Below are positions 1,411 to 34,819 of a stretch of 63,916 nucleotides of DNA, in pieces (the stretch's first letter is position 1; every line of letters begins with the position of its first letter). The position numbers and the translations under genes are program-made. The notes under the pieces were generated by a model. It had not been told where the DNA came from and did no database searches. It saw only the letters and a program-made list of their open reading frames with translations. Source of the stretch: a virus. The stretch is taken from positions 1 through 63,916 of the IMG/VR virus record IMGVR_UViG_3300032047_000008; one strand, written 5' to 3'.

Positions 1411-1424
1411 AAACTATGTATATG

Positions 1425-1433
1425 TATATTTAT
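1425..1433 (+). promoter_or_regulatory. Late-promoter box TATATTTAT
   Basis: The box ends 5 nt before ATG 1439. No Shine-Dalgarno sequence can fit between them, so a transcript starting about 6 nt past the box would be leaderless. It belongs to the recurrent family described in the findings. Confidence 0.5.
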
Positions 1434-1438
1434 AATTT

Positions 1439-1858
1439 ATGGAAAATGACACAGAAATATTTGACGGAAAGACATTTTCTTCATTGATAAAGGATATATA
1501 CTTCAACTCTTCCCATAAAAAAGATCAGATAAATCAGCTAATAAAGGACCTACATAAAATGGTCAAGGATTCGGGTAGTGCAACAATAATAGCACCTATG
1601 ATAAAAGACTATCTTGATGTGGGTATAAAAAACGATGATCAACTAGTAAAGTTGTCTGCGGTTTTACAACGATTTATTTCAGGTGGGTCTTCGGCCGAAA
1701 CTGACTCCGGTGTGGGGGGTATTTTAAGTGAAGATGAGAAAAAACAATTGTTATCTAATGTTAAAAAAGAAATTAAAACAATAAAGGGTGAAGAAGGAGA
1801 GATTAATTTAAATTTAACTAAAATAAAAGATAAGTTTACATCAGATGGCTCACAGTAA
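1439..1858 (+). CDS. Conserved-looking phage protein upstream of the baseplate spike
   Basis: 139 residues, soluble, with charged helical N- and C-termini (HKKDQINQLIKDLHKMVKD; KKQLLSNVKKEIKTIKGEE) and a Gly/Ser linker near residue 83 (SGGSSAETDSGVGG). No catalytic motif is visible. It overlaps the spike gene by 14 nt, and the late-promoter box directly before its ATG makes it the first gene of the baseplate operon. The context suggests a baseplate or tail-assembly protein. I do not recognise the family. Confidence 0.6.
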   Translation: MENDTEIFDGKTFSSLIKDIYFNSSHKKDQINQLIKDLHKMVKDSGSATIIAPMIKDYLDVGIKNDDQLVKLSAVLQRFISGGSSAETDSGVGGILSEDEKKQLLSNVKKEIKTIKGEEGEINLNLTKIKDKFTSDGSQ

Positions 1859-8899: not shown

Positions 8900-9486
8900 A
8901 AAAAAACTTAGATTTTTTAGAAAAGTATGATTTCAACCTAGAATCATATAATGAGTATATTTCAAAAAAAATATCCAAAGATTTGCTGGATGATTTTGGT
9001 AATTTAATACTAAGTGCAAATATAGAAGAATCAAATATTACCGAAGTTGAAAAATTCATCTTGAAAGTTCCTGCGAAAAAGAAAAAGTTAAAGAAAACAC
9101 AAGTTGAACTTTTTATGGATACTCATGTAACTGAGTTCACAGACGTGGAAGACGAGGGGGATGTGGTATCTGACTCCGAGGGGCCGATAGTCGACTTAGC
9201 AGATGAAATTGACAACGAGGTTAGATCACAACTCGATCAAGAACGTATATTACAGACTCAAATCGATGAAATGTCAGATATTCTAGATTCCGAAATTGAA
9301 AAGGGAGTTCACTTTCAAGAGAAATCTTCAGAAAACTTCACCGCCGCAAAAAATATTATAATATCACAAAGGATTTCTGCTGGTGAGGGAAGTTCTCCAT
9401 CAGACTTTAGTAACAAGTTTCCCTTTTTACCTTTGGGTGAAACAACCGAATCCGAAGTGGATACATTTCCGTTTTTATCCGAGTAA
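8896..9486 (+). CDS. Acidic protein of the baseplate operon, unknown function
   Basis: 196 residues, overlapping the previous gene by ATGA. It has a Lys-rich patch near residue 60 (PAKKKKLKKTQ), then a long acidic region (TDVEDEGDVVSDSEGP) and helices. FPFLPLGE and FPFLSE motifs occur near the C-terminus. The repeated FPFL could be a short docking motif. No known domain is recognised. Position between the beta-sandwich protein and the giant gp7-like protein suggests an assembly partner. Confidence 0.5.
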   Translation: MKKNLDFLEKYDFNLESYNEYISKKISKDLLDDFGNLILSANIEESNITEVEKFILKVPAKKKKLKKTQVELFMDTHVTEFTDVEDEGDVVSDSEGPIVDLADEIDNEVRSQLDQERILQTQIDEMSDILDSEIEKGVHFQEKSSENFTAAKNIIISQRISAGEGSSPSDFSNKFPFLPLGETTESEVDTFPFLSE

Positions 9487-9493
9487 ATGAGAT

Positions 9494-12400
9494 ATGAGTG
9501 AATATATAAAAATGGTTAAACAAGCACCCTCTAATCAAGAATTTGATTTTCCAAGATCATCGTTGGTTTCGGAAGATTTGTACAGAATTGTGGTAAGTGA
9601 CAGTGATGATAGTCCTGTGTACGACTTCGGCCGAAATCCAAAGGATATAGCAGAGTTTTCAATTTACTCAAATGATAACAAAGTAATAAAGACAAAAGTA
9701 ATTAAACCAGTTGATTCGTTTAAACGAAAAACTTTTGATTTTACTGATTATGGTGGAGTAAGACGAGCAGGATCGTTATCACTGTTCGACACAAAGTATG
9801 AGGTCACAGAAGATAATGAACTCGTATTATCTCCCACACACGAACTAAGAGAACTCGGAGAACAAGGTGGTTCTTTCTTGGTGGGTGTATCTATGAAGCA
9901 GGAATTAATAGGATCATATGAGTCCACTTCTAAACTTCTGATTCAGGACATTTCACCGAGTAGAACTGAAATTAAGATAATACCAAGTTCACTAAAAACA
10001 AGTCTCAGACCACTCGATGTGGCTCTTAATGTAGAATATTTAAATTATTTTAACAAAAAAATTCCAGTTTCTCATATTTTTTATGAAATACCCTCGTTAC
10101 TTAGTGAAATTGGAACTAGAGTGCAGGTCGAAAATTTAATTGCAAATGGGTATCTTGTAGAAAACTTAAAAGAACGACTCTATGAGTTAGTAGACTTTTA
10201 TAATTTTGCATCCTTAGATAGTTTTTCACATGATTGTGATGGGGTGTATAATGAAATAAAATCTTTGTACTTAAATACATTCTTATACAACTACAATAGT
10301 ACATATACCCGTGGAGAAATTTCCAACGAATACGAAAAGTGCATAGACTATATATTAAATAAAACACCTAAGTTTAAAAATACCTCAGATAAATTACATA
10401 CTAAGTATAAATCACTATATAAAGAGGTTCTTATGACGATGTTCAATTTTAATAGATTGGGTAATCTGTTTGATGAAAAATTCGAATCATATCTATCGAC
10501 CAGCATGGTATTTGAAACAGGCGAGCAAGTTTCTGTATTATCGACAGCTCGCAGTACAGACAACATTTCTGATCCAGTTAAACACAGACCGTTGCTATTT
10601 AAACTTCAACAACCACTGTCACATGACATTAAAGTTGGTGCATCATTTCATTTGCTTGGTTTATTTTATTCCGACGACATTATACAAAGAACTATTTTGT
10701 ATAAAAAGGTAAAACCAAAATTATATAAACTTAGAAATCCTGATTTAAGTGGTATTGCTTCGCAGGGTACCAGAAGCTATACATCAGAGCAGTTAAATAA
10801 AAATAAATCACAAATAGAAAAAGAGTCTTTATTAAATCTCAATTCTACTGATCCTGGTATATTAGAGAAAATAAAAGAAGTTGAAACTGAGTGGAGAGAA
10901 GAGGTATTCGGATCACCAATAAAAATCACAGAAGAAATATCAAATTATTTTAACAATCAAACTGAGGACTATTATCTGTCCGTTGATTATTCTGATTTTA
11001 AAAATTTCATAAGATATTCGTCTGCCCGTAAACGACTAGATGTTTTTATTTTAAAATTAACTAAAATTTCAAAATATGACAGAGAGTTAGAGGAAATACG
11101 AAAATCATATAGGGCTAGTACACCCGAGAAGTTTGGTAGACTCTCATATGACACGGAGATTGAACGATTAAACAAAGAAAAAGTACAAATTTTAAATTCA
11201 CTGGACGGATACGAGAGGTTTTTATATTTTGAGGATATAACCGAACTGACCGACTCAGCTACAAAAATAAAAATACGAATAGATGAACTAATGCAAAAAA
11301 AGATCTCACACGGAGATTCTTCGGGTGAACTTGACTCTAAAATAAAAGAATTAGAAGCAGACTTACTATACACTTATATAAGTTGGCCAAGAGCAGAATT
11401 TAATTGTGATAGTGTAAATGATTGGAGTCCAAATGCATTTGATTACAAAGAACACGATGCTGTGTATATGGAAGACCACATTTATATACTAACAGGACCC
11501 GATCCAGTTAACTCACTTGATATACCCGGTGTCAGTGATAGGTGGTCGTTATTTTGCAGTTGTGATGAGTGTGTTGGAAAAAAAATTCCACTAAATACAA
11601 CATCTTATTCATTCTTAACATCACGTGACTATTATCGCCCTATGCCAATACCGGAGGATATGGAAGATTTCTCAAAAACAACAGGATATACTTGGTATTC
11701 TGAGAAGGCTCGTGAAGCTGAAGCATATGATAAGCAAAACGACAATTCTTTTGCCAATAACACACCTGAATTTATTGTCCGTGATCCTGACAATGAAGAA
11801 TATTTTGAATTTTTATCATTTATTGGTCACCAATTCGATTTAATACATTTGTATGTAGAGGGAGTTGGTAATATTAAAAAACCTCTTAACAATCCCGATA
11901 AGGGAATTCCAAACGAATTGGTCTCTCATATGCTTGGATATTTTGGTGGGAGTTTTGAGGGGTATGATGAAGGAGAAATAAATTCACTGGCACGTGACAT
12001 CAAGACAGATGAAGAACTTGCGTTTGTTAAGAAGTTTAAGCAAAAAAAACACTTAGTGTGGAGACGTATACTAAATAATTTACCATATATTTTAAAAACA
12101 AAAGGAACAGAAAAATCCATTCGTGCTTTGTTTAGGTGTTATGGAGTACCAGATTATTTATTTAAAATACGAGAATTTGGGGGGATTGAATATAACACCG
12201 AAACCAGTGATAAGGTATTGTATACATTTGATTCGTTTGATTATTTTCTTAAACTTGAAAGAGACAATCAGTATATAGAACTTGACTGGAAAACTGAAAC
12301 TTATCAATCAAGGTGTGTGGAATTAAAATTTTCATTTAATGAAGATCTGTGTGACATAACATCTGATATAGAAATTCTAGCATCAAAAAAGGATCTGACA

Positions 12401-19504: not shown

Positions 19505-22500
19505 ATGATCAAGAGACTCAAAAGTTCTGATAAAACTATTAGGCCGTTTACAACCTTTAAGTCGTGGAAACATTCAACTGTTGACAATCTTGATTCACTT
19601 GTGCTTGAGCAGCCATTATATGACTTAAAAACTCCGTCTGGTGATATTATCTATTCAAGTAAAACTTGCTTACAAATTAGTGATATATTAAAGAACGAAT
19701 ACGGGTTGGAGTTGGATGCTTGCAAACACCCAACCATAGACTTAGAGTCTGTCAAACTTGAAAAAAAAATTCATAGTAATGTTAATTATGAAAATGGTAT
19801 AGTGGTTTCTCCTGAAGAGATTAACACCTCAGACAGAGATGCGTTCCCTATCAAAAAAACAAACGGAAAAAAAACAAATGGAACATTTTATCCATCTGAT
19901 CATCCGAGGTTTGATAAAACACATGAGTTATTGAATTGGGACGGAAGTTATCAGAGATTGGTGTACAATAATATAAAGCATTTATTTTATAATGATTATT
20001 TTGTTGAGCATTTTGATTATACTAGAAATAAAAAGTTAAATATAAAAAACCCACGAATGTTGTTTGGGGTCGAGAGTGCAGAATACCACGACCCCACCGT
20101 GCTAGAAGATATTGACCAGGGAGAATCATATACAGGTCTAAAACTTGAACGTCGTGTTATTGAAGACGAAATAACTGTAGTTGAAATTTCTCAAAAAACT
20201 TTTGGTGATAAAATAAAACCTGGTTCGGTTCAAATACGAGATAACAGTTCAATGTATGATACCATTGATGTGGTGGATGACGGTTATACTAATTTAGTTA
20301 CAAATACATTTACATTTTCCGACATTAACACAATTGAATTTGATGACACTGTCTGTGGGTTGCATGAAAGTCATCAGTCCAACTCGTTTTCCTTTGGAAA
20401 ATCAACAGCTGCGTATAAAGACTATTTACTCGTTGGAGCTCCTGTGAGTGTAGACACACCAGACGAATCGCAATCTGGGTTGGTTGTTTTATATAAAAAA
20501 GATCAAGCAACAAACAATTTTAGGTGTATTCGTAGTTTTATGTGTCCGTTTACTCAAAATGGTTTGGCACTGGAGCAGCGTCAAGACCACAATGATCTAT
20601 TGTTCAGTGAATTAAGTGGGGTACTTCTTGGTAAGGACTACTCGTTAAATGACCAGTTTGGTAATGCGTTGGAACTAACAGAGACTACCTGTGTAATTGG
20701 CTCACCACAGACACACATTCGGGGTACCACATCCGAGTCAAGAACCGGTCACGTATTTGTTTACGATAAAAACAAAGGTGGTGTTGATAATTGGGGGTTG
20801 GTAAATATTATCGAGGGGGTCCCTGAAACTGAGTTCGGGTACTCGGTATCCGTCTACAATGAAAAAATGGCAATTGGAGCTCCTGGTGCTATGAATGGTC
20901 GTGGTGTTGTGTATATTTTTGAAAAGAAAATACGAACAGAGGATAGTCCGTGGATTCGTCTGACCGATGTACCTGAAGGTTATGAATTCAACCAGGAGCA
21001 GAATACGAGGGTTGGATATCCATCTGGTGAAGAGTTGATAAAAGTAAATAAAGATACAACCAGGTGGAAAATTAATAGCGTTATACCACCGGGATCGCAA
21101 CTTGGGTGTTTTTATTCTTCTGAATCAATTAACATAGATTCAATATGCGACTCCGGTAGTTATCTATCTGGTGAAACTATAACTAAAAAAACAGATGATA
21201 TAATAAAACGGTATAGAAGACCGGGAACATGGATCTCAGGAAGTAATGTGTCTGGAACATACGAATCCGGATGCGTTGTTAATCCGGTAATTGAGTCTGG
21301 TAACTTTCTATCTGGTTGCATTGAGTCTGGTAACTTTCTATCTGGTTGCATTGAGTCTGGTAACTTTCTATCTGGTTGCATTGAGTCTGGTAACTTTATA
21401 TCAGGTTGCATTGAGTCTGGTAACTTTATATCAGGTTGCATTGAGTCCGGAACAAATGTACACCCCACCACGATAGATTGGAGGGAGTTTATATCTGGAT
21501 GTATGGTCGAAGATATACTACCTGGAGTAGAAATAACATCAGGAAACTTAGAACCAGTTTATTATAGTAGTTGTATATCAGGAAGTAACGAGTTCGTGAG
21601 TGGAAGTGTTTGTCCATGTGAAGTGTATACTTTTTCAGATGAAAAAATTATAGTAGAATCTTCTATAGTTGATGAAGAACTAGACTTTGATTCCGGATAC
21701 GAACCACATGAGTACACAAATACCCCTAAGTTTGCCATAGGTGACTTTACGTGGGAACTTACTGATGTCATTTATGGAGACCAAACCCAGACAAATATCA
21801 CCCCACCACACCCGTCTACGGAAACACCAAACTCAAATGCTAAGTGTGAAAGATTTGGTGAGGTTGTAAAATTGCACGAAAATTATTTATATGTATCAAC
21901 TCCGTCTTCTGAAAAACAAATAGTATATGTTCATAAATACACGCATGGAGGGTGTCCAACGGAGTGGGGTGTTGTAAACAAGATAACACGTGAGTATTTA
22001 TGGTCATCTGAAGGTAGTGAGTTCTCGTATTTCGGTACTGATTCACGGGATGGTTCGGTTTTATACCCATATATTTACGAAAAACCAACAGATGTTTCGG
22101 GTAAGGCAGTACACAACTTTGGAATTTCACTTGATGTAAATGATAGATTTCTTGTCATAGGTGATTCCAGAGATCGTGTGTATAAAAACAATTTAATTGA
22201 AAATGAGGGTGGGGTTGTATTTGTATTTTCTTCTAATGAAAATTTACATTTCAAATATAAGATATTTTCACAAGAAGATAAAGAAGAACCAGATACATTT
22301 AGATTTGGTCAGTCTATTTCGTTATATGAAACAAGCTTGGTAGTTGGGTCACCTTCAATAGAAACTAGTAATATAACAATAGATGATACTGGTAATTTAC
22401 ACGCAGATGACTATTTTTTTGGAGTATCAACGTCAAATCAAGAGTTTATAGAATTTGGAGATACTCAAATGAATACAGTTCAGGGAAAAACTTATTATTT

Positions 22501-23713
22501 TGATTTATTAGATAGTAAATACGAATCGCTAAAGACGGTAACATCCACAAAAGAGAAGATGTCAATACGAAAACAATATGGTTATTCAGTTTCAATTACA
22601 TCTGAGTTTATTTATGTAGGCTCCCCCATACTTGGGACATTTCCACAATATGGGTTGGCTACATTTGACGAAATTGATATAGGTGTGGGTAAATCACAAG
22701 CATTATTTTCATATTATGATAAAACTTTATATAGTTCAAGTTTTTCTCATACGAACTTATCTGGATTGGTTGGTTTGGTAATGACATACGATTCAATTAC
22801 AATAACCAATAAAAAACAACTTCAAGTAGGAAATATATTTTATAAGAACGGAATAATCGTTTTATCTGGAATAAAGTCTGGATACATGAAAGACTTTATG
22901 CAGAAAAGTGGCTACTCGGGTTATGAAATCAAATTCAAAGGTATGCATACCCTACATGAAACTGAAATTTTATGTAAAGTCGAACCGAACGAGTTTAATA
23001 TGAGTACTAACCCAACCTCTGTGGTACGTGATAAAATTTTATATGACATTAATGGGGACGGTAAATTTGATATTTTTGATTTGATTTTTATATTCAAGTT
23101 TCTAACCGATACATCACCTGTATCCACGCAAACTCAAGTAGAATTCACCGACACCGAACTTGAAACGGGTATATCGGTGGAACAAGATACAATGTGGCCT
23201 AACTCAGATATAATACTAACTGAGTCTGAAGATGCCATACTTAAATTTTTTGTAAACGAGTCATCTAATGTAAAAATGGACGAATATTCACTATATTTGC
23301 CATATTTGCGACTTTTAAAAGAACAGGGCCACTTTGACATAAATAACGACGGTTTGTCAAACAGAACAGACGCAAAAATTATACTTCGTTACTTCCGTGG
23401 AAACTCTGGAGTAGATTTGGTCGGTGGGTTGTTAACACCTGGTTCAAAGAGAAGAGTTGCTGTAGACATTATTAAGTTTTTAGACGAACGAACAGGAAAG
23501 TTTAATGGGGTAGAGATTTTAAAAGATTTTGAGTCATTTAGTGATTTAAGAAAACTTATAAAAAACGGAAAAAATTTAGATTCATTGAAACCACACGCAA
23601 CTACAATCGGCCTATACGATGGTCTTTCTTTGGTTGGTGTTGCTAAACTCGGCCGTCCAATCAAAATAACTAATAGTTATCCAATAAATTTTTTAGTAAA
23701 ATATGACGGTTAG
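19505..23713 (+). CDS. Giant fibre/adhesin: FG-GAP propeller, decapeptide repeats and dockerin-like EF hands
   Basis: 1402 residues. Seven FG-GAP-like blades can be read, each starting FG(x)S/A and ending (V/I)G(A/S)P or a variant, then a V-hydrophobic-Y/F strand. They start near residues 294 (FGKSTAAYKDYLLVGAP), 382 (FGNALELTETTCVIGSP), 441 (FGYSVSVYNEKMAIGAP), 779, 870 (FGISLDVNDRFLVIGDS), 933 (FGQSISLYETSLVVGSP) and 1023 (YGYSVSITSEFIYVGSP). Between blades 3 and 4 sits an insert with five IESGNFLSGC-type decapeptides and further SGC/SGN motifs. Two dockerin-like Ca-binding loops follow: DINGDGKFDIFDLIFIFKFL at about 1181 and DINNDGLSNRTDAKIILRYF at about 1277. The C-terminus shares the GLY...VAKL.RP module with the upstream protein. 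FG-GAP propellers are extracellular ligand-binding folds, so this is probably a receptor-binding fibre. No enzymatic motif is seen. Confidence 0.65.
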   Translation: MIKRLKSSDKTIRPFTTFKSWKHSTVDNLDSLVLEQPLYDLKTPSGDIIYSSKTCLQISDILKNEYGLELDACKHPTIDLESVKLEKKIHSNVNYENGIVVSPEEINTSDRDAFPIKKTNGKKTNGTFYPSDHPRFDKTHELLNWDGSYQRLVYNNIKHLFYNDYFVEHFDYTRNKKLNIKNPRMLFGVESAEYHDPTVLEDIDQGESYTGLKLERRVIEDEITVVEISQKTFGDKIKPGSVQIRDNSSMYDTIDVVDDGYTNLVTNTFTFSDINTIEFDDTVCGLHESHQSNSFSFGKSTAAYKDYLLVGAPVSVDTPDESQSGLVVLYKKDQATNNFRCIRSFMCPFTQNGLALEQRQDHNDLLFSELSGVLLGKDYSLNDQFGNALELTETTCVIGSPQTHIRGTTSESRTGHVFVYDKNKGGVDNWGLVNIIEGVPETEFGYSVSVYNEKMAIGAPGAMNGRGVVYIFEKKIRTEDSPWIRLTDVPEGYEFNQEQNTRVGYPSGEELIKVNKDTTRWKINSVIPPGSQLGCFYSSESINIDSICDSGSYLSGETITKKTDDIIKRYRRPGTWISGSNVSGTYESGCVVNPVIESGNFLSGCIESGNFLSGCIESGNFLSGCIESGNFISGCIESGNFISGCIESGTNVHPTTIDWREFISGCMVEDILPGVEITSGNLEPVYYSSCISGSNEFVSGSVCPCEVYTFSDEKIIVESSIVDEELDFDSGYEPHEYTNTPKFAIGDFTWELTDVIYGDQTQTNITPPHPSTETPNSNAKCERFGEVVKLHENYLYVSTPSSEKQIVYVHKYTHGGCPTEWGVVNKITREYLWSSEGSEFSYFGTDSRDGSVLYPYIYEKPTDVSGKAVHNFGISLDVNDRFLVIGDSRDRVYKNNLIENEGGVVFVFSSNENLHFKYKIFSQEDKEEPDTFRFGQSISLYETSLVVGSPSIETSNITIDDTGNLHADDYFFGVSTSNQEFIEFGDTQMNTVQGKTYYFDLLDSKYESLKTVTSTKEKMSIRKQYGYSVSITSEFIYVGSPILGTFPQYGLATFDEIDIGVGKSQALFSYYDKTLYSSSFSHTNLSGLVGLVMTYDSITITNKKQLQVGNIFYKNGIIVLSGIKSGYMKDFMQKSGYSGYEIKFKGMHTLHETEILCKVEPNEFNMSTNPTSVVRDKILYDINGDGKFDIFDLIFIFKFLTDTSPVSTQTQVEFTDTELETGISVEQDTMWPNSDIILTESEDAILKFFVNESSNVKMDEYSLYLPYLRLLKEQGHFDINNDGLSNRTDAKIILRYFRGNSGVDLVGGLLTPGSKRRVAVDIIKFLDERTGKFNGVEILKDFESFSDLRKLIKNGKNLDSLKPHATTIGLYDGLSLVGVAKLGRPIKITNSYPINFLVKYDG
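21291..21440 (+). repeat. Five tandem 30-bp repeats encoding IESGNF(L/I)SGC
   Basis: Five 30-bp copies (unit begins ttgagtctggtaactttcta). The first three are identical; copies 4 and 5 share two substitutions (tata/tcagg). The repeat places a cysteine every ten residues and leads into a degenerate sixth unit (IESGTNVHP). Confidence 0.95.
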
Positions 23714-24629: not shown

Positions 24630-25160
24630 ATGTCAGAAAATAAAATTTCTCTTGGACTTGATATTAGTTCAACTGTTGTAGGATATTGTGCATCTATTTC
24701 CAAGGAGGTGGTAATTGATGCGGGGTATGTTGATATACACAAAGAATCTAGTATTAAGAATAAAGCACATGCACTTGCAGGATATCTTGACCCCCGTTCA
24801 GTTGACCCACATACTATAATAGTTGAAGATTCTTTGAGTGGATTTGGAGGAGGTCGGACGAGTCAACAAACGATTGTAAAACTCGCAAAGTGCAACGCAG
24901 TAATAAGTTATGTAATAGAGGCTATGTATGATGTCGAAGTCAATCATGTAAATGTATCAACTTTACGTAAAGCAGTATTCGGAAAAAGTCGTGAACAAGG
25001 AGTTGATAGTAAAACTTTTGTACGTGAACAACTTGAAAAAAAGATTGATTTAAATGAGTTTATCGTCTATAATAGTAGAAAAAATTATGATAAAAGAAAC
25101 TACGATATGTTGGACGCAACGGTAGCATCACTGTATCATTGGTATACTATTGACAATTAA
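24630..25160 (+). CDS. RuvC-like (RNase H fold) Holliday-junction nuclease
   Basis: 176 residues, the usual size of RuvC. The acidic tetrad of the RuvC/RNase H fold is visible: D11 in LGLDISSTVVGY, E67 in IIVEDSLSGFGGGRTS, and two Asp near 159-162 in YDMLDATVASLYHWY. RuvC-like resolvases cut four-way junctions; in T4 this job is done by the unrelated endonuclease VII (gp49), not seen here, so this protein may replace it for debranching DNA before packaging. It starts the replication/recombination block and overlaps the primase gene by one base. The start codon lies in a small inverted repeat (CATAC AAG GTATG, 24620-24632). Confidence 0.8.
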   Translation: MSENKISLGLDISSTVVGYCASISKEVVIDAGYVDIHKESSIKNKAHALAGYLDPRSVDPHTIIVEDSLSGFGGGRTSQQTIVKLAKCNAVISYVIEAMYDVEVNHVNVSTLRKAVFGKSREQGVDSKTFVREQLEKKIDLNEFIVYNSRKNYDKRNYDMLDATVASLYHWYTIDN

Positions 25161-26086
25161 TGGGGATTTCCGAGCAAAAGTTATATGCCTTGTTGCAGAA
25201 GGTGCTAGGTGAAGGTAAAATCGTCTCTAAAGACGAAGCAATGTTTGTGTGTCCGTTTTCTCATCACCGTAAACCAAAGTTGGCAGTTAATCTTACAACG
25301 CAACGTTGGCAAAGTTGGATTGATACAAATGCCAAAGGTCGTAGCATTTTTTCGTTATTTAAAAGAATGCAGGTTCCAAGCAATTATTTTGCAGAGTTAT
25401 CCAAGATTGTCAAACTTCCAAAAAATACCAAACTTGCAGATACCGAGGAGCAATTTGTATCGTTGCCTTATGAATTTAAAAGATTGACCGAAACGCATAC
25501 TGATTTTTTTTATTCTAAAGCAATGAAGTATTTAAAAAATCGTGGAATTCAATCATACGATATTGAAAGATACGATATAGGATATTGTGATAAAGGGGAT
25601 TATGCTGGACGAATCATTGTTCCTTCATTTGATGCAGACAACAAATTAAATTACTTTTTAGCAAGAGATTTTACAGGTAATGCTTATTTGAAGTATAAAA
25701 ATCCACCAGTAAGCAAAGATGTAGTTGTATTTGAAAATCAAATAGATTTCTCTGAACCATTAATTTTGTGCGAAGGTGTTTTTGATGCAATTGCGATTCG
25801 TAGAAATGCAATTGCTTTACTCGGAAAAAATATTCCAAGCAAACTTAAAATGCGTTTGGTAGAACATGGTGTAAAAGAAGTTAGCATTGTATTAGATAAT
25901 GATGCGTATAAAAACGCATTATATATATCAGAAACTTTAATGAACGATGATATAAAAGTAAAATTGGTCAGAATGGGAAATGAAGATGCAGCCGATTTAG
26001 GATTTAACAAAATTATTCATAGAATCAGAGAAACCAATCTTCTTGATTTTAGTGAATTGATGAAGCAAAAGTTATGCATGAATTAA
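25160..26086 (+). CDS. 61: DNA primase (gp61/DnaG-like) with degenerate zinc ribbon
   Basis: 308 residues, close to T4 gp61 (342). The N-terminus aligns with a primase zinc ribbon (FVCPFSHHRKPKLAVNLTTQ, then RWQSWIDTNAKGRSIFSLFK). The family's CPFC...WHCWVC ligands appear as CPFS...WQSWID, so three of the four cysteines are missing. The TOPRIM catalytic domain is intact: the first acidic motif LILCEGVFDAIAI (E204) and the later SIVLDNDAY. Primases synthesise RNA primers for lagging-strand replication with the replicative helicase, which is not in this window. It overlaps its neighbours by 1 and 13 nt. Confidence 0.8.
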   Translation: MGISEQKLYALLQKVLGEGKIVSKDEAMFVCPFSHHRKPKLAVNLTTQRWQSWIDTNAKGRSIFSLFKRMQVPSNYFAELSKIVKLPKNTKLADTEEQFVSLPYEFKRLTETHTDFFYSKAMKYLKNRGIQSYDIERYDIGYCDKGDYAGRIIVPSFDADNKLNYFLARDFTGNAYLKYKNPPVSKDVVVFENQIDFSEPLILCEGVFDAIAIRRNAIALLGKNIPSKLKMRLVEHGVKEVSIVLDNDAYKNALYISETLMNDDIKVKLVRMGNEDAADLGFNKIIHRIRETNLLDFSELMKQKLCMN

Positions 26087-26778
26087 AAACTAATTTAAAA
26101 AATATTGAAAAAGTTTATCATTTGGCAGATATTCATATAAGAAATGTAAAACGACACACAGAATACTCGTTGGTGTTTGAAAACTTCTATAAACAGGTAA
26201 AAGAAGACAACTATGACAATGCAATAATTTTTATAGGTGGGGATATTGCTCATGCCAAAACCGAAATGAGTCCTGAGCTAATTCATCAGATATCTTCATT
26301 TTTAAGAGAGTGCTCAAAACTTCATCCAACAATAGTAATTGCAGGTAATCACGATTGTAATTTAAACAATCCAGACCGTCTTGATGTATTATCTCCGATT
26401 ATGGATATGATGGACGATAAAAATTTGTTTTACCTAAAAAACAGTGGAGTATATAAACTAGGTGACGTTGCGGTGGGTGTATTCAGTATATTAGACGAAC
26501 CTGAGAATTATATCTCAGGTCTTGATATAAACGATCCAAGTATTAAAACCAAAATTGCAGTTTATCATGGTGCAGTAAAACGTAGTATGACAGACATTGG
26601 GTATGTTGTTATGGGTGGTGACATTGAACTTCCTATGTTCAATGGGTATGATATTGTTATGTTAGGTGACATTCACAAACATCAAGTATTACAGGAATAT
26701 CAATCAGAGCATAAATTTATTCCAGAAGATAAAGTAGATGAGTATAAACTAAAGGGGTGGTGTCTAGCAGATGACTAA
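26074..26778 (+). CDS. 47: Recombination nuclease gp47 (Mre11/SbcD-like), N-terminal half only
   Basis: 234 residues against 339 for T4 gp47. All metallophosphoesterase motifs are present: HLADIHIRN (D19, H21), FIGGDIAHAK, IAGNHDCNLNN, VYHGAVKRS and LGDIHKHQ near residue 200. The protein then diverges (EYQSEHKFIPEDKVDEYKLK) and stops, lacking the segment that normally follows (PGS-IQQ-GE and the capping domain). That segment is found at the start of the gp46 fusion gene at 27696, beyond an inserted glycosyltransferase gene. gp47 and gp46 form the Mre11-Rad50-type complex that resects ends for recombination-dependent replication. Its stop overlaps the next ATG by 8 nt. Confidence 0.85.
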   Translation: MHELKTNLKNIEKVYHLADIHIRNVKRHTEYSLVFENFYKQVKEDNYDNAIIFIGGDIAHAKTEMSPELIHQISSFLRECSKLHPTIVIAGNHDCNLNNPDRLDVLSPIMDMMDDKNLFYLKNSGVYKLGDVAVGVFSILDEPENYISGLDINDPSIKTKIAVYHGAVKRSMTDIGYVVMGGDIELPMFNGYDIVMLGDIHKHQVLQEYQSEHKFIPEDKVDEYKLKGWCLADD

Positions 26779-27709
26779 TATATTAATCAGATGCAGAAAC
26801 ATTCATATTGGTGATGTTATTTTTTGCAGTAGTGTCGCAAAAAAGTTAAAAGAAAAAAATCCCAATTGTGTTGTTCACTTTGATGTTAATTATCTACAAC
26901 CTATAGAGTTGTTGACAAATAACCCACATATTGATGGAGTCTTTTATAAAGAAAATGCGAATATAGATTATGATGTTGTGCATGATATAATGAATGCAGA
27001 TGTATCTACACTTTGTCCATATGAGTCAGCGGTATCTCAGTTTCAACGCATGTGTGGAATTGAAAATTTCGACGATACCTTTGAAGTTTTTACAAATCAT
27101 CAACTTGACTATTCAATACAAAGAAGTATAGAGGAGTTGACAAACATGGGAGATTGGGAAACTGACTTAGTTAAAATAGGTTATCAAGTTGACTGGGATA
27201 GAAAAAGTTTTTTGTTTACTGAAGATCAGTATAATCGGTCAGAGGGTGGTGAAGATGGAACTGGATATGGAAATGGTAAAAGAAATATTTTTGATATAAT
27301 AAAGTGTATGGAACTTTCACCAAAAGTTATGTTGTTTGCACTTGGTATAGAAGATACTATATCAAAAAGTTATCCATGTTTAAACTCGACAAGTAAATTC
27401 TCATTTACCACAAGTTTAATGAAAAACTGCGATTATGTTGTAGGTGGTGAAGGGTGTCTTACTAATATATCTTCTGCTCTTGGTACAAATACAATAATAA
27501 CTACTGATTATATCCATCAAATGTTCGGACCAAAAGGAATATTGTGGCAACAAAGTGGGGGTGATGTAAATAACCTAGAAACAAGAATTCCGTATTTGGG
27601 ACCTTGTAAATATTTTCCAAATGATAACCATGTTCACCTGAATCCGTTTTTAACTGATTTCGAAGTAGGAGAACAAATTTTAGAAACTGCATTAAATGGA
27701 CGAAGTTAA
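26771..27709 (+). CDS. GT9-like (heptosyltransferase-type) glycosyltransferase inserted within gp47
   Basis: 312 residues. The N-terminus (NILIRCRNIHIGDVIFCSSV, then AKKLKEKNP, VHFDVNYLQPIELLTNNPHI, DGVFY) is the first Rossmann domain of GT9/heptosyltransferase-like GT-B enzymes. The second domain shows FTTSLMKNCDYVVGGEGCLT followed by ALGTNTIITTDY, the donor-sugar binding region. It overlaps the upstream gp47 fragment by 8 nt and the downstream gp47C-gp46 fusion by 14 nt, so all three are co-translated. Such enzymes transfer sugars to lipopolysaccharide, proteins or modified bases; the acceptor here is unknown. Its location inside a split recombination gene is unusual. Confidence 0.7.
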   Translation: MTNILIRCRNIHIGDVIFCSSVAKKLKEKNPNCVVHFDVNYLQPIELLTNNPHIDGVFYKENANIDYDVVHDIMNADVSTLCPYESAVSQFQRMCGIENFDDTFEVFTNHQLDYSIQRSIEELTNMGDWETDLVKIGYQVDWDRKSFLFTEDQYNRSEGGEDGTGYGNGKRNIFDIIKCMELSPKVMLFALGIEDTISKSYPCLNSTSKFSFTTSLMKNCDYVVGGEGCLTNISSALGTNTIITTDYIHQMFGPKGILWQQSGGDVNNLETRIPYLGPCKYFPNDNHVHLNPFLTDFEVGEQILETALNGRS

Positions 27710-30299
27710 AGAAAAATATGTAAAGATAAAAAGGCACAACCAGAATAAACCAATCGTAGTTTATTCCGGAAGTATGATTCAACAAAACCACGGTGAAAAA
27801 CCATATGGTCATGGTTATGCATTGTGGGATTTACCAACCCGTGAACACACCCACCACGAAGTCCATAATGATTATGGATATTATACAATTGAAGTGCGTG
27901 ATGGAGAGTGTGTCAGTGATTTGAGTAAGTTGCCAAAAAAAGCAAGACTTCGTGTAAAGGTATACAATACAACAGCAACCGAAACAAAAGAAATAATTGC
28001 AGACATTCGCAAACGAACAAGTATAAGTGATTTAAATGTAACAAGATGTGATGCAATATCAGAAGCAAAGAAATATGATCGTGACAATAAATTTGATTTT
28101 GGTGACATATCACTAATTCAAGTTCAAAATGATTTAATAGAAGATTATCTTCGTAGAAATTTTGTAGTTGATGATGATCAAATAAAAACTGCACTAGATA
28201 TAAATAAAGAAATAAATGATAAACTTGTAGTAAAAGAAGTTCTTAGAAATTGTATTTGGAAACCCAAGAAATTTGAGTTTGGAAATATGTTTAGTTACGG
28301 AGATGGTAACATTGTAGATTTTTCAAACATGAAAAGTGTCATGGGATTATTTGCTTCAAATGCAAGTGGAAAGAGTAGTGTTATGAGTGCATTAAGTTTT
28401 TGTCTGTTTGATAAATGCGACAGAGCATTTAAAGCAGCTCATGTACTGAACACCCAAACAGAATCTTTTTATTGTAAATTAAATTTTGAAATATCGGGAG
28501 TAAACTATTTCATAGACAGAACTGCAACTACCAAAAAGAATGGTGATGTAACTGTTGTAGTTGACTTTTGGAAGTTAGATGATGATGGCCAACAACTATC
28601 ATTAAACGGAGAACAAAGAGCAGGAACAAACGCAGCTATCCGTGACCATGTAGGTTCATATGATGATTTTGTTTTAACTGCACTTAGTTTGCAAAACAAC
28701 AATGCTATTTTTATAGATAAAAGTCAAAGTGAACGAAAAGATTTACTTGCTCAGTTTATGGGCATTGATACATTTGATCAATTACATACAACTGCATCTG
28801 AAGACATCAAAGAAATTAATGCTCTGTTGAAAAGATTTAACCGTGACGAGTTTGATAAAACTTTATCTGAAACTCAAGAAAGTCTTGGTGGTGTTAAAAA
28901 ACAATATGCTGAACAAGATAGTAAAACTAATATAGCACTTCTTGAGCAAAAGAGATTCAATAAGCAATTGGCAGATAAAAATTCCCAATTTAAGAATTGT
29001 TCTTTTGATGAGTCATCTGTGGATATAGATAAACTTGAATTTGATAAAAAGAATTTACAAGAACGTTTAATTGTGACCGAAGAAAATAGAGACATAGAAT
29101 CAGATAGAAAAAAACAATTAGTAACAAATCGTAAAAACAAATCAACGGAATTATCTTTATTGGATGGAACTAACGAAAAATATGTTGAAGTTCTAAAAAT
29201 ACGTGAAGAAATAACAAAGGTCGAAAAAGACTTAGCAGTTCTTCGTACATCCGTAAATGCCAAGTTAGATAAACTAAAACACTATGATAGTCACAAATAC
29301 GATCCTAAATGTAAGTTCTGCGTAAACAATTCAAAAAATCTTATAGAAAGTGCTTCGCAGACAAAAGAAGAACTTGATAAAGATAAAGCAGCTGCTGATG
29401 ATCTGGTAACACAAAAAAATGAATTGTCAAAAATACTAGATGAATATAAAGATGTTGAATCTAATTATGAAAAGTTAGGTGAACTAAAATCTACAACAAC
29501 CCAACTTACTTATGAAATTAATGAAGCAGATTCTAAAGTTCTTGCTTTATCAAGTATGTTAGAGTCGTTGGGTAAAGACATAGTATTAAATGATAAAAAC
29601 ATTAAAGCATACTATGAATGCAAAGATATTATAGAGTTTAATAAAAAACTACAATTAGATGTAAATGAAATTGAATCTAAGTTAATTACGATAAATAACT
29701 TAGCAGATACAGAAACTGAGAAACTTCAAACTTTATTTGGTGAAGTTAAAATTATTGAAAAAGAATATGAAGATATTGTTGCGTCAATTGAAGAGGCAAA
29801 AACCTACGAAAGAAAAAAACGTGGTTATGAACTTTATTTAGACGCAGTAAAACGTGATGGTATTTCGTATGAACTTATTTCCAAAACAATTCCTAGTATT
29901 GAAAGTGAAGTTAATAATATTCTTTCTCAGATTGTTGATTTCGGTATGCAGTTAGAAATGGATGGAAAACATATCTATTCAAAGATTACATACGAAGATC
30001 GTCATTGGCCTTTAGAAATGTGCAGTGGAATGGAACGATTCATTAGTAGTATCGCAATGAGAGTCGCACTTATCAACGTAAGCAGTTTACCACGTTCTAA
30101 TTTCCTTGTTATTGACGAAGGATGGGGTTCGTTGGACGGAGACAACATAAGTAGTGTATTTAATCTGTTCACCTATTTAAAGGGGCAGTTTGAGTTCGTA
30201 ATGGTTATAAGTCATTTGGACGTAATGAGAGATATGGTGGACGAAATTATTGAAATTCAAAAAGAAGGTTCTTTTAGTAAGATAAAATACACATCATAA
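27696..30299 (+). CDS. 46: Fusion of gp47 C-terminal part with gp46 (Rad50/SbcC-like ATPase)
   Basis: 867 residues. Residues 17-60 (KPIVVYSGSMIQQNHGE, then YGHGYALWDL) are the conserved gp47/Mre11 segment that follows the last metal-binding motif, and residues up to about 190 look like the Mre11 capping domain. Rad50 begins near 190: Walker A GLFASNASGKSSV (about 218), a long coiled coil, a zinc hook CKFC (about 538), the ABC signature MCSGMERFISSIAMRVAL (about 775), Walker B NFLVIDEGWGSLDGDN (about 800) and the H-loop VISHLD. T4 gp46 is 560 residues. With the separate nuclease half at 26074 it should form the end-processing complex. Confidence 0.85.
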   Translation: MDEVKEKYVKIKRHNQNKPIVVYSGSMIQQNHGEKPYGHGYALWDLPTREHTHHEVHNDYGYYTIEVRDGECVSDLSKLPKKARLRVKVYNTTATETKEIIADIRKRTSISDLNVTRCDAISEAKKYDRDNKFDFGDISLIQVQNDLIEDYLRRNFVVDDDQIKTALDINKEINDKLVVKEVLRNCIWKPKKFEFGNMFSYGDGNIVDFSNMKSVMGLFASNASGKSSVMSALSFCLFDKCDRAFKAAHVLNTQTESFYCKLNFEISGVNYFIDRTATTKKNGDVTVVVDFWKLDDDGQQLSLNGEQRAGTNAAIRDHVGSYDDFVLTALSLQNNNAIFIDKSQSERKDLLAQFMGIDTFDQLHTTASEDIKEINALLKRFNRDEFDKTLSETQESLGGVKKQYAEQDSKTNIALLEQKRFNKQLADKNSQFKNCSFDESSVDIDKLEFDKKNLQERLIVTEENRDIESDRKKQLVTNRKNKSTELSLLDGTNEKYVEVLKIREEITKVEKDLAVLRTSVNAKLDKLKHYDSHKYDPKCKFCVNNSKNLIESASQTKEELDKDKAAADDLVTQKNELSKILDEYKDVESNYEKLGELKSTTTQLTYEINEADSKVLALSSMLESLGKDIVLNDKNIKAYYECKDIIEFNKKLQLDVNEIESKLITINNLADTETEKLQTLFGEVKIIEKEYEDIVASIEEAKTYERKKRGYELYLDAVKRDGISYELISKTIPSIESEVNNILSQIVDFGMQLEMDGKHIYSKITYEDRHWPLEMCSGMERFISSIAMRVALINVSSLPRSNFLVIDEGWGSLDGDNISSVFNLFTYLKGQFEFVMVISHLDVMRDMVDEIIEIQKEGSFSKIKYTS

Positions 30300-30342: not shown

Positions 30343-31389
30343 ATGAGCAATTCCGAAGAAAATCAAGAAGTCCAAGAAGAAAGTCTTATCAAGGCCGGAC
30401 TTCGTAAGGGGTATTTTACACTCGTTGAGGGTGTATATGATCCTGGTATTTTAAAAGCAGTGTTTTTAGCGGGTGGTCCTGGTGCAGGTAAATCAGCAGT
30501 TGTAGATACCGTTTTTAATACAACACCCGAAGTAAAGTCATTAACTTCAACTGGATTAAAAATAGTAAATAGTGATAGTTCGTTTGAACATTTGTTGAAA
30601 AAAGCAGGACATAGTTTAGATTTAGGTTCTTTAGACGATGTTGTGTTTCAACAAATAACAAGTGATGATCCGAATTCAATTCGTTCACGTGCCAAGAACA
30701 TCATGCTTAAACAATACGAGAATTACAAGAACGGTAGATTAGGTGTTATTGTTGATGGAACTGGTGATGATTATGCTAAGATATCAAAACAAAAGAAAGA
30801 GTTGGAAAAACTTGGATACGATTGTTATATGGTATTTGTTAATACAACACTTGAAGTTGCACAACAAAGAAATGCGTTTCGTGCAAGAAAACTTCCACGT
30901 AAAATTGTGGATGTTATATGGAAAGATGTTCAAAAGAATATGGGGAAATTCCAGAGTTCATTCAAGCAGAATTTCACGATCATTGATAACTCTGAAGATT
31001 TAAGAAGCAAAACAAAACCAGGTAAACTCAATCTTGCTCCTTTTATATTAAAAGCAACTGCAAAATTTATCGGAAAACCAATTCGCAATCCTATTGGTAA
31101 ACAGTGGATTACTTTAATGATGAAACACGATAGCATGACCAAAAGTGGTGACAAACGAAATCGTGTTAATGAAGAACTTGATATGATATCAATGGAGAGT
31201 GTGATTCTTCCTATGGATTTAGAACGACATTTAAGTCGTTCAATTCACGTTATCAACAAGTTCAAGTTAAATGAAAAAAGAAATTTGGCGGTGCTAACAA
31301 GGTTAATCGAAAGTCTTAATTTAAATAGAAATCAAATAAACAAGTATTTTCATCAACTTAGAACTTTAAAATTTAGAGGAGAGAAATAG
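30343..31389 (+). CDS. P-loop kinase, zeta-toxin / polynucleotide-kinase-like
   Basis: 348 residues. Walker A is VFLAGGPGAGKSAVVD (residues 44-52 core). A catalytic-type Asp follows in IVNSDSSFEHLL, a VIVDGTGDD motif near 137, and an Arg-rich lid NAFRARKLPRKIV near 185. This is the layout of zeta toxin, chloramphenicol phosphotransferase and polynucleotide-kinase-like P-loop enzymes. The C-terminal third (about 230-348) is basic and helical with no recognised domain. It is followed with a one-base overlap by two small genes and then by the nucleotidyltransferase-ligase-like gene, so a nucleic-acid repair partnership is possible. The substrate is not determinable from sequence. Confidence 0.7.
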   Translation: MSNSEENQEVQEESLIKAGLRKGYFTLVEGVYDPGILKAVFLAGGPGAGKSAVVDTVFNTTPEVKSLTSTGLKIVNSDSSFEHLLKKAGHSLDLGSLDDVVFQQITSDDPNSIRSRAKNIMLKQYENYKNGRLGVIVDGTGDDYAKISKQKKELEKLGYDCYMVFVNTTLEVAQQRNAFRARKLPRKIVDVIWKDVQKNMGKFQSSFKQNFTIIDNSEDLRSKTKPGKLNLAPFILKATAKFIGKPIRNPIGKQWITLMMKHDSMTKSGDKRNRVNEELDMISMESVILPMDLERHLSRSIHVINKFKLNEKRNLAVLTRLIESLNLNRNQINKYFHQLRTLKFRGEK

Positions 31390-32266: not shown

Positions 32267-34819
32267 ATGAAAAAAGTTCCCACAGAGTTTTATGCAAACG
32301 ATTTAACGGAGTTTATGCTGAGTGACTTGTTGCATGAAAAATCCAATGTTAAAAAAGTAATCGGAATATATCCTGGTAGGTTTCAACCCGCTGGTCTACA
32401 TCACTATAAAACTTACAAGTGGTTAGATGGTAAATTTGACAAAGCATATGTAGCTACGAGTAACAAAACTAATGCTACTAACAGCCCATTGAATTTCAAA
32501 GAAAAGAACATGATATGGAAAAAACATAAAGTTAAGAATGTAGTTGAAGTTAAAAATCCATATGTGTGTGCAGAGATATTAGACAATTATGATCCCAAAA
32601 CAACCGCTGTAGTTTATATATTCGGTGAAAAGGACGCAGGTAGATTAAAAACAAAAAAAGCAGATGGTTCACCTGCATATTATCAATCTTATGATAAAAA
32701 TAAAAATAATTTAGTACCATATGCAGAGCATGGATATTTTATCGTTGCACCTCATGTACGCATCAAGGTTCTTGGTAAAGAAGTAAACGGAACATATATC
32801 CGTGAACTTCTAGGAAGTCCGAAATATACAGATGAACAACGCATAGAAGCATTTGAAGAGTTATTTGGTTGGTATGACGAAAAGATATATGTTTATTTAA
32901 AAAAGAAGTTTGGTACTTTGTTTGAAAATGAAGAAATCTTTGAGGGGTTTTTACACACATATCCTAAACTTGAGCAATTAGTTGAATCATTTCCAAGTCT
33001 ATTAAATGAAATAAGTTCAATATCTGCAATGGGTGCTTCACTTGTAGATGATGGTCCAGCTGGATACTTTCCCGGAGATTCATATGAAACTCACACTAAA
33101 AATCGTGCCGAGCAACTTGGATATGAACTACTTGATTATGTTGTCGGAAAATCTGAAAATACAAGAAACTCGGATTACAGACATTGGGGTGATTATGCCG
33201 GACCAGTACCCTCAGTTTCCTTTTATCCTGCGGGTGACATTGATGTAGGAACTCCTACTAATCAAATTAATACAGAAAAAAGTCTCTCTGCACATGATCA
33301 ATACACAAACTTTATTTCTAAAGTTGCAGAAACTGCGGGGTATAAATTGGTAGACTTTGTAGGTTCAGAGAAGTCAATTAGAAAACAGGATAAACAAGGA
33401 GACGAAGAACTAACGGGTGGTCATACAATCGATGTAGAAAAAACAGAAGATGGAGAAACAGAAATAGACAAAGGGGTTGAGGGGCATGCGGTTAAAGAGT
33501 CGTTTGAGACGATACTCAATGAATATGCAGAATTATTGATTGAAGGAGGTGCAGCTGGTCATATGAGTCATCCGTTTGATGATAAAGATTTAACTTTTGC
33601 TGATTTAAAAGAAATGATTCGTAGGTCTTTGGCAGGAGAACTTAATGTTGAAAAAGAAGTTACCGAAAAATTAGATGGTCAAAATTTAATGTTTTCTTGG
33701 AAAGACGGAAAGTTGGTCTCGGCGAGAAATCAAGGTCATTTAAAAAACGCAGGTGCAAATGCTCCTGATGTAACTGCATTTGAAAACATTTTTGCGGATC
33801 GTCCTGAAAACATTCGTGACGCATTTGTAAGTGCAGTAAAAGATTTAGAGTCGGCAATTTCAAAGTTATCCGATGCACAAAAGAACAAGGTGTTTAAAGA
33901 AGGTGAGCGGTTTATGAACATAGAGGTTATGACACCTGCAACACAGAATGTTATTCCTCAAAATGTAGATATGCTCGTATTCCACGGAACTCAGGCATAC
34001 AATTCCGCAGGAAAACCAGTTTCAGAAGATTCGGATGGAAGCGATATAACAGGTGAATTAAAAGATTCTGCTCGTATGTTAAGTGGAATGCTCAAACAAA
34101 TCAATGCAGATGTTCAAAGTCGGTATTCGTTGAACGCACCTATTGTCGTGGAACTTCCTAAAAGTAAAACATTTGGCGATTCTTTTAAAAAATATTCTGC
34201 GATGCTTGATAAACTTAAAAAAGAATTTAAATTAAAAGACAATGATAAAGTAATGAAGTATCACGATGCTTGGTGGAGAACTCTTTTAAATAAACAACAA
34301 AGCAAATTAAAAGAGATATTTCCTGCAAAAGTGTATGAAGCACTTATAGGTCGTTGGGCATACAATGATAAATCAAATAAGATCACAACGATTCGTATGG
34401 ATTTATCCGAGCAACCCAAACTTAAAGATTGGGTAAACAAATTTGAAAAAGAAGATATCGTAAAACAATTTGAAAAGAATATGTGGCCATTTCAATTCAT
34501 CTTTTTGAAACTTGGAGCAGAAGTTCTGCAAAATGTTAAAGGATTTGTGGCTGCTGGTGGAAGTGATGATATAGCAAAAGCACTCGATGCACACACTAAA
34601 ACTTTAAAAGCAAAAAAGATTAGTTCGGTGGAATCACCTGATAAGTTTAAAAAAGATATAGCAAAACTTTTCAAAAATCTTGATAGATTAACTGCGATTG
34701 GTGGAACGAAAGTAATCGCACCCAGTGAAGGAGTTGTATTTCAATACAAAGGTGGAACATATAAACTTACTGGTACATTTGCTCCTATAAATCAAATTAT
34801 GGGAATAATGAGGTTCTAA
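32267..34819 (+). CDS. Nucleotidyltransferase (NMNAT-like) fused to an RNA/DNA-ligase-like domain
   Basis: 850 residues in two parts. Residues 20-230 form a HIGH-superfamily adenylyl/cytidylyltransferase domain: IGIYPGRFQPAGLHHYKTYK (the two His correspond to the H.GH signature), IFGEKDAGR and the TYIRELLGS motif equivalent to ISST-R. A low-complexity linker runs to about 420. The second part begins EGGAAGHMSHPFD and carries ligase-like nucleotidyltransferase motifs: EKLDGQN with candidate adenylated K468 (motif I), SARNQG, FMNIEVMTP (motif III-like), EGVVF at E821 (motif IV) and YKLTG (motif V). The gap between motifs III and IV is much larger than usual. Related EGGAAGHM proteins occur in marine T4-like phages without a proven function. 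The ligase assignment is inferred from motifs. Confidence 0.6.
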   Translation: MKKVPTEFYANDLTEFMLSDLLHEKSNVKKVIGIYPGRFQPAGLHHYKTYKWLDGKFDKAYVATSNKTNATNSPLNFKEKNMIWKKHKVKNVVEVKNPYVCAEILDNYDPKTTAVVYIFGEKDAGRLKTKKADGSPAYYQSYDKNKNNLVPYAEHGYFIVAPHVRIKVLGKEVNGTYIRELLGSPKYTDEQRIEAFEELFGWYDEKIYVYLKKKFGTLFENEEIFEGFLHTYPKLEQLVESFPSLLNEISSISAMGASLVDDGPAGYFPGDSYETHTKNRAEQLGYELLDYVVGKSENTRNSDYRHWGDYAGPVPSVSFYPAGDIDVGTPTNQINTEKSLSAHDQYTNFISKVAETAGYKLVDFVGSEKSIRKQDKQGDEELTGGHTIDVEKTEDGETEIDKGVEGHAVKESFETILNEYAELLIEGGAAGHMSHPFDDKDLTFADLKEMIRRSLAGELNVEKEVTEKLDGQNLMFSWKDGKLVSARNQGHLKNAGANAPDVTAFENIFADRPENIRDAFVSAVKDLESAISKLSDAQKNKVFKEGERFMNIEVMTPATQNVIPQNVDMLVFHGTQAYNSAGKPVSEDSDGSDITGELKDSARMLSGMLKQINADVQSRYSLNAPIVVELPKSKTFGDSFKKYSAMLDKLKKEFKLKDNDKVMKYHDAWWRTLLNKQQSKLKEIFPAKVYEALIGRWAYNDKSNKITTIRMDLSEQPKLKDWVNKFEKEDIVKQFEKNMWPFQFIFLKLGAEVLQNVKGFVAAGGSDDIAKALDAHTKTLKAKKISSVESPDKFKKDIAKLFKNLDRLTAIGGTKVIAPSEGVVFQYKGGTYKLTGTFAPINQIMGIMRF

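What the first reader, a model, noticed from the sequence alone, without database searches (positions are those of the whole stretch)
26074..30299. gp47 (Mre11) split by a glycosyltransferase gene, with its C-terminal part fused to gp46 (Rad50)
The 26074-26778 gene has every Mre11 metal-binding motif up to GDIHKHQ and then ends. The segment that should follow in gp47 (VVYSGSMIQQNHGE and the capping domain) is found 900 bp downstream as the first ~190 residues of a gene that continues into a full Rad50/gp46 ATPase. Between them sits a GT9-like glycosyltransferase whose ends overlap both fragments by 8 and 14 nt. The three genes form one translationally coupled unit. One event may have fused gp47 to gp46 and another split the fusion, yielding a nuclease half acting in trans with an ATPase that carries the cap. 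I know of no standard T4-like phage with this arrangement. An undescribed processing complex, or moonlighting of the GT, is possible.
Basis: partly seen in the sequence, partly recalled or inferred. Interest (0 to 1): 0.85.

Follow-up and report, generated by a model that had tools for sequence, protein, structure and literature searches.

The report
Phage DNA-repair nuclease gene in pieces
A virus of bacteria has its DNA-end-processing enzyme cut in two by a sugar-transferase-like gene, at a spot where related viruses carry a selfish DNA-cutting gene instead, so an unrelated gene seems to have settled in a gap that such selfish genes open again and again.

Summary
26074-26778 (M) is a phage Mre11 nuclease core that stops after GDIHKHQ. 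The missing strands and cap begin the 867-aa gene at 27696 (R), which continues into a complete Rad50 ATPase. Between them lies a 312-aa gene (G) with a GT9-like fold, overlapping M by 8 nt and R by 14 nt.

It is not an artefact: all 37 G relatives found in other viral contigs lie between M and R. About 84% of 239 motif hits in relatives are continuous Mre11-Rad50 fusions, a known kind of protein (PMC3175470).

The same loop is also split in other phage contigs. Three hold one family of homing-endonuclease-like genes, one a 74-aa remnant of it, and one or two nothing. An unfused gp47 with an empty site also exists. Split nuclease halves share an added tail (Y...GW).

Best reading: a genes-in-pieces locus like Aeh1 nrdA. 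The halves reassemble in trans, and G occupies a slot probably opened by a homing endonuclease. Nothing supports G acting in repair. Reassembly, and replacement of the endonuclease by G, are inferred.

The parts
26074..26778 (+). M: N-terminal Mre11 (gp47/SbcD) nuclease core, 234 aa, ending after metal motif V with an added tail
   Evidence: PF00149 E 1e-7, phrog_100 E 2e-16; metal-ligand positions invariant in 39 relatives; fold matches P. furiosus Mre11 1ii7, E 6e-7
26665..26685 (+). GDIHKHQ, metal motif V; the split lies just downstream
26686..26775 (+). C-terminal tail of M (VLQEYQSEHKFIPEDKVDEYKLKGWCLADD); from about the fifth residue on it is absent from intact relatives; Y...GW shared with other split lineages
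26771..26778 (+). 8-nt overlap of the M stop and the G start (ATGACTAA), the same length in all 31 complete split loci
26771..27709 (+). G: GT9-like protein, 312 aa, found only between M and R
27696..27709 (+). 14-nt overlap of the G end and the R start
27696..30299 (+). R: C-terminal part of Mre11 (last sandwich strands and cap) fused to Rad50 (gp46/SbcC), 867 aa
   Evidence: AAA_23 E 5e-11, phrog_77 E 2e-42; alignment with intact fusions
27696..27755 (+). N-terminal extension of R (MDEVKEKYVKIKRHNQNKPI), mostly absent from intact relatives
27756..28256 (+). Mre11 C-terminal segment in R: strands VVYSGS and HGYALWD, cap, linker to Rad50
28257..30296 (+). Rad50 ATPase: Walker A 28344-28376, zinc hook CKFC 29310-29321, signature CSGMER 30021-30038, Walker B 30102-30137
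25160..26086 (+). Upstream primase-like gene, overlapping M by 13 nt; same order in L118, where M' also overlaps the primase

Best explanation
A genes-in-pieces Mre11-Rad50. An ancestral single-chain Mre11-Rad50 fusion was cut in the surface loop after metal motif V. The nuclease core (M) and a polypeptide holding the rest of Mre11 plus Rad50 (R) are made from overlapping genes and most likely fold together in trans, R supplying the last strands of the phosphoesterase sandwich and the cap. The tail on M and the extension on R probably help dock the halves. The gap was most likely opened by a homing endonuclease gene of the zinc-bead plus PD-(D/E)xK type seen at the same site in other phages, and the GT9-like gene G now occupies that slot as a passenger with its own function. 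Shown: the split, its one origin in this clade, the older fusion, same-site endonuclease-like inserts elsewhere, protein-level conservation of every piece. Inferred: trans assembly, the role of the tails, replacement of an endonuclease by G, enzymatic activity of G.
For: Intact single-ORF relatives align across the break; 200 of 239 motif hits are continuous; window clade one group (SH-aLRT 100) among fusions. All pieces under purifying selection, dN/dS at most 0.25 where computable. Same loop split by one endonuclease-like family in L118, L513 and unfused L514, a 74-aa remnant in L516 (E 3e-12 to the L118 gene), none in L497; L515 is whole gp47 without insert. Tail with Y...GW at a fixed distance from GDIH in five split lineages; among 1,884 other distinct ORF ends only L118's own M had it. 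Precedent: split nrdA of Aeh1 is fully functional (PMC2988022).
Against: No member of the window clade has been seen with an endonuclease in the gap, so replacement by G is by analogy. Whole-tail profile similarity to other lineages is only suggestive, the extension similarity weak. The tail is not confidently folded in the model of M. For the window clade and L118 alone the full-length data do not reject one origin (p-AU 0.109), so the number of independent splits is uncertain. No complex could be modelled.
Confidence: 0.65

Rival explanations
1. G itself inserted into the intact fusion gene by illegitimate recombination, with no endonuclease stage; the halves still work in trans and the tail and extension arose at the insertion.
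For: G is in every member of the clade that could be checked and no endonuclease is.
Against: The break is in the very loop used by endonuclease-like genes in other lineages, and M's tail shares Y...GW at the same position with them.
Confidence: 0.25
2. The halves are rejoined as RNA or protein: G lies in a self-splicing intron, or M-G-R is made by frameshifting.
For: Phage gene fragments flanking endonuclease genes are spliced in ICP1 (PMC10448857); the frames are adjacent.
Against: No RNA family match in the window region or in five split loci; the gene overlaps leave no room for an intron core; tail and extension are selected as protein; a 3-frame product would need shifts within 8 and 14 nt, and no slippery site was seen (by eye).
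Confidence: 0.04
3. G is a working subunit of a three-part DNA-processing complex.
For: Invariant gene order and likely translational coupling.
Against: G changes fastest (48-93% identity where M is 66-97%), has a GT9-like fold, and other split loci have an endonuclease-like gene or nothing in its place.
Confidence: 0.03
4. M is a dead or separately working remnant and the locus no longer makes an active Mre11.
For: M lacks the last strands and the cap that every intact relative has.
Against: Metal-ligand positions are invariant across split and intact forms, and dN/dS of the M core is 0.03-0.06.
Confidence: 0.05

Closest known systems
Aeromonas phage Aeh1 nrdA split by mobE; also T4 topoisomerase genes 39/60 and split gene 43 of Aeromonas phages (review PMC2988022, citing Friedrich et al. 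2007)
   Same: An essential phage enzyme interrupted inside its coding region; both parts kept as proteins; overlapping start and stop codons; function retained in trans (shown for nrdA and gene 43, inferred here).
   Different: The gene between the halves is GT9-like, not an endonuclease; the target is Mre11-Rad50, already a fusion; the same loop is cut in several lineages.
Single-chain Mre11/Rad50 fusion proteins (Mimivirus R555 and relatives; Yoshida et al. 2011, PMC3175470)
   Same: Mre11 followed by Rad50 in one gene in this phage group; the paper infers that many such genes belong to aquatic viruses, including phages.
   Different: Here the fusion gene is cut inside its Mre11 part.
T4 gp46/gp47 and bacterial SbcCD
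   Same: Nuclease and ATPase motifs and the overall fold.
   Different: In T4 and SbcCD nuclease and ATPase are two genes; here the border between the two proteins lies inside the nuclease.
GT9 heptosyltransferases (3tov, E. coli heptosyltransferase II 1psw, WaaC)
   Same: Predicted GT-B fold with GT9 entries as best matches; an IGD motif near the N-terminus aligns with GT9.
   Different: About 10% identity, no curated family match, donor and acceptor unknown.
Crona et al. [quoted passage not shown]
   Same: Extra pieces at the break on both halves.
   Different: Docking by the tails is untested here; the paper itself is not held.

Membership tests
Mre11/SbcD/gp47 nuclease | Phosphoesterase core with the metal-binding motifs | tested here: met
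   Ligand positions invariant in 39 relatives; fold match to Mre11; motif V is GDIH where cellular Mre11 has GHIH
Mre11/SbcD/gp47 nuclease | Core, last strands and cap in one polypeptide | tested here: not met
   Strands and cap are in R, 918 nt downstream
Rad50/SbcC/gp46 ATPase | Walker A, signature, Walker B and zinc hook | tested here: met
Single-chain Mre11-Rad50 fusion | Both proteins in one ORF | tested here: not met
   Met in about 200 relatives, not in the window or its clade
Genes-in-pieces by homing endonuclease insertion | Uninterrupted homologue in relatives | tested here: met
Genes-in-pieces by homing endonuclease insertion | The gene between the halves is a homing endonuclease | tested here: not met
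   G is GT9-like; met only in other lineages, L118, L513, L514
Genes-in-pieces by homing endonuclease insertion | The separate polypeptides form a working enzyme | not testable with these tools
   Purifying selection on both halves is consistent
GT9 glycosyltransferase (G) | GT9 fold | tested here: met
   3tov E 4e-9, 1psw E 5e-7, probability 1.0; TM-scores only about 0.55, model pLDDT 78
GT9 glycosyltransferase (G) | Match to a curated glycosyltransferase family | tested here: not met
   No Pfam family above cut-off for 18 members; GT9 structure 3tov by sequence only E 0.18
Homing endonuclease (inserts in L118, L513, L514) | Nuclease domain of a known type | tested here: met
   TnsA-like PF08722: L118 above cut-off, L514 E 1e-4 and L513 E 0.01 below it; L118 also HNH phrog_1271 E 4e-15; the three are homologous
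Homing endonuclease (inserts in L118, L513, L514) | Cuts the uninterrupted allele and spreads by gene conversion | not testable with these tools
   A related whole gp47 without insert exists (L515)

The most novel reading that the evidence does not exclude
One family of phage homing endonucleases targets a single loop of phage Mre11, in fused and unfused forms alike. It brings a tail for the nuclease half and perhaps an extension for the cap half, which dock the pieces so the broken enzyme still works. In the window's clade the endonuclease was later replaced by a GT9-like gene, so a homing site became a fixed cargo site inside a repair enzyme.
Probability: 0.45. Interest if true: 0.75.

Novelty: new variant of a known kind. 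Interest (0 to 1): 0.62.

Why it matters
Mre11-Rad50 processes the DNA ends that homing depends on, so a selfish gene that breaks Mre11 tampers with the machinery behind its own spread. A loop found intact, with the endonuclease, with a remnant, empty but still split, and refilled by an unrelated gene would lay out the life cycle of a genes-in-pieces locus in living relatives. It also gives natural split points in Mre11 and a set of short tails with which to test how broken enzymes come to reassemble.

Tried and rejected
Tail and extension alone against Pfam and PHROGs gave nothing of use. A whole-tail profile from the other lineages scored the window tails only suggestively, and the extension test was weak; the fixed-position motif count is the better evidence.

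Apparent long in-frame loops in L313, L326 and L366 were an error of my pattern. L234 and L305 first looked split or cut and are continuous. L145, a nuclease piece running into a reductase-like ORF, looks like a misassembly and was left out. L346 is split with no insert, but its Rad50 part has an internal deletion that may be an assembly error, so it is counted with caution.

A genome-contig scan with the L118 nuclease half found no relative. An intron, frameshift fusion and assembly artefact were considered and set aside.

Full report
What is there. Three overlapping genes follow a RuvC-like and a primase gene: M (26074-26778, 234 aa), G (26771-27709, 312 aa) and R (27696-30299, 867 aa). M has the Mre11 phosphoesterase motifs up to GDIHKHQ and then a 30-residue tail. 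R starts with about 20 extra residues, continues with the gp47 segment VVYSGSMIQQNHGE...HGYALWD and the cap, and runs into a full Rad50 ATPase with Walker A, zinc hook, signature and Walker B. The record is a 63,916-base linear virus contig. It also encodes tail sheath, baseplate, portal, large terminase and major head protein, so it is a contractile-tailed phage.

It is real and fixed in a clade. A scan of IMG/VR found close relatives (mostly 80-97% identical) with the same M-G-R order, and distant ones (about 40%) with a single ORF of about 1,050-1,075 aa and no G. In all 31 complete split loci, window included, G starts 5 bases before the M stop codon, an invariant 8-nt overlap. A separate search for G found 37 relatives, every one between M and R. 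Pairwise dN/dS against six relatives is 0.03-0.11 for M core, cap and ATPase, and 0.06-0.20 for G; tail and extension are at most 0.25 where computable, several pairs being saturated at synonymous sites. In the tail, codon position 2 varies least and position 3 most, so the tail is selected as protein.

Order of events. Three scans for the GS-x-x-QQNHGE motif gave 239 hits: 200 continuous, 37 split by the automatic rule, 2 cut by a stretch edge, one of which proved continuous. All but two of the 37 are the window clade; the other two are L337 and L346. In a tree of 54 full-length proteins the window clade is one group (SH-aLRT 100) inside the fusions. So fusion came first and the split second. 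Single-chain Mre11-Rad50 fusions are known, described from Mimivirus R555 and inferred to be common in aquatic viruses (PMC3175470). A cultured phage, Microcystis phage Mel-JY01, has one.

The same loop is cut elsewhere. In the 484-kb phage LR756508 (L118) the nuclease half (41% identical over all 234 residues, tail included) and the cap-Rad50 half are separated by a 305-aa gene with zinc-bead and TnsA-like nuclease parts. A homologous gene directly precedes a cap-Rad50 ORF in L513; that contig starts too close to show its M half. A homologous gene splits an unfused gp47 in L514, whose relative L515 has gp47 whole. L516 (the L337 contig) keeps a 74-aa ORF homologous to the nuclease end of the L118 gene (E 3e-12), evidently a remnant. 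L497 is split with nothing between. So is L346, but its Rad50 part has an internal deletion that may be an assembly error. L404, a neighbour of L337 in the tree, is continuous but has a 49-aa loop there, possibly a re-joined form.

How many origins. On the nuclease core, parsimony needs six changes of state and well-supported branches force four. One clade of all splits is rejected (p-AU 5e-49), and one clade of the fused-type splits too (p 0.003). For the window clade plus L118 alone, full-length data do not reject one origin (p 0.109). Homing could also spread the split state between lineages, so changes on the tree need not be separate inventions.

The tails. Split nuclease halves end in a tail with Y...GW: EYKLKGW (window), KYLNSGW (L118), LYLDKGW (L346), KYMEMGW (L497), NYLKNGW (L514). 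GW lies 30 residues after GDIH in the three fused-type cases and 28 in the two unfused ones. Among 1,884 other distinct ORF ends only L118's own M had Y...GW near the end. The L337 tail lacks GW. A whole-tail profile test was only suggestive and the extension test weak. The AlphaFold model of M is confident for the core, which matches P. furiosus Mre11 best, but not for the tail.

What G is. G has no curated family match. Its model (pLDDT 78) matches GT9 enzymes best: 3tov E 4e-9, E. coli heptosyltransferase II E 5e-7. TM-scores are only about 0.55, so a GT9-like fold is a fair statement and activity is open. Nothing links it to DNA repair.

How it most likely works. Ribosomes probably read M, re-initiate at G and again at R (inferred from the overlaps). 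M and R then fold together as one Mre11-Rad50. This follows Aeh1 nrdA, where insertion of a homing endonuclease left a fully functional two-piece enzyme (PMC2988022). The title of Crona et al. 2011, seen in the reference list of PMC3267527, says that the Aeh1 pieces assemble through domains derived from the mobile element; the paper itself is not held. Splicing is unlikely: no RNA family match and no room for an intron core. In the window's clade the occupant is G, not an endonuclease, so the locus fails one tested feature of the nrdA kind and I call it a variant.

Confidence. Observation certain. Fusion then split about 0.95. Trans assembly about 0.8. Endonuclease-founded slot about 0.6. G not part of the repair complex about 0.9. 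No paper found describes a split phage Mre11, but the library is partial.

Noticed in passing
L346 (IMGVR_UViG_3300009408_000003), reverse strand, locus positions 8-1597: The split nuclease half carries a roughly 320-residue insert with LAGLIDADG-like motifs between GNHD and CNLNN, looking like an intein at the active-site motif.
   Followed up: partly
L497, reverse strand, about 6780-9581: The separate Rad50 gene appears to carry an intein-like insert next to Walker A (GGKC...HN/TTL).
   Followed up: no
L404, reverse strand, 1369-4626: A continuous Mre11-Rad50 ORF with a 49-aa loop at the split site; its tree neighbour is the split L337, so it may be a re-joined form.
   Followed up: partly
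window 21100-21480, inside ORF 19505-23713: Short near-identical repeats of the type SGCIESGNFL inside a large ORF; also visible as a reverse-strand ORF at 21160-21471.
   Followed up: no
window 32267-34819: 850-aa ORF beginning with a nucleotidyltransferase-like motif (GIYPGRFQPAGLHHYKTYKWL), part of a larger protein of unclear make-up.
   Followed up: no
window 30343-31389: Gene after R: 348-aa P-loop kinase/ATPase-like protein (phrog_12810 E 2e-35, phrog_2071 E 2e-11) of unknown function.
   Followed up: no
L145 (IMGVR_UViG_3300006334_000919) 2-1798: A piece of this clade's M runs in frame into a reductase-like ORF, probably a misassembly.
   Followed up: partly
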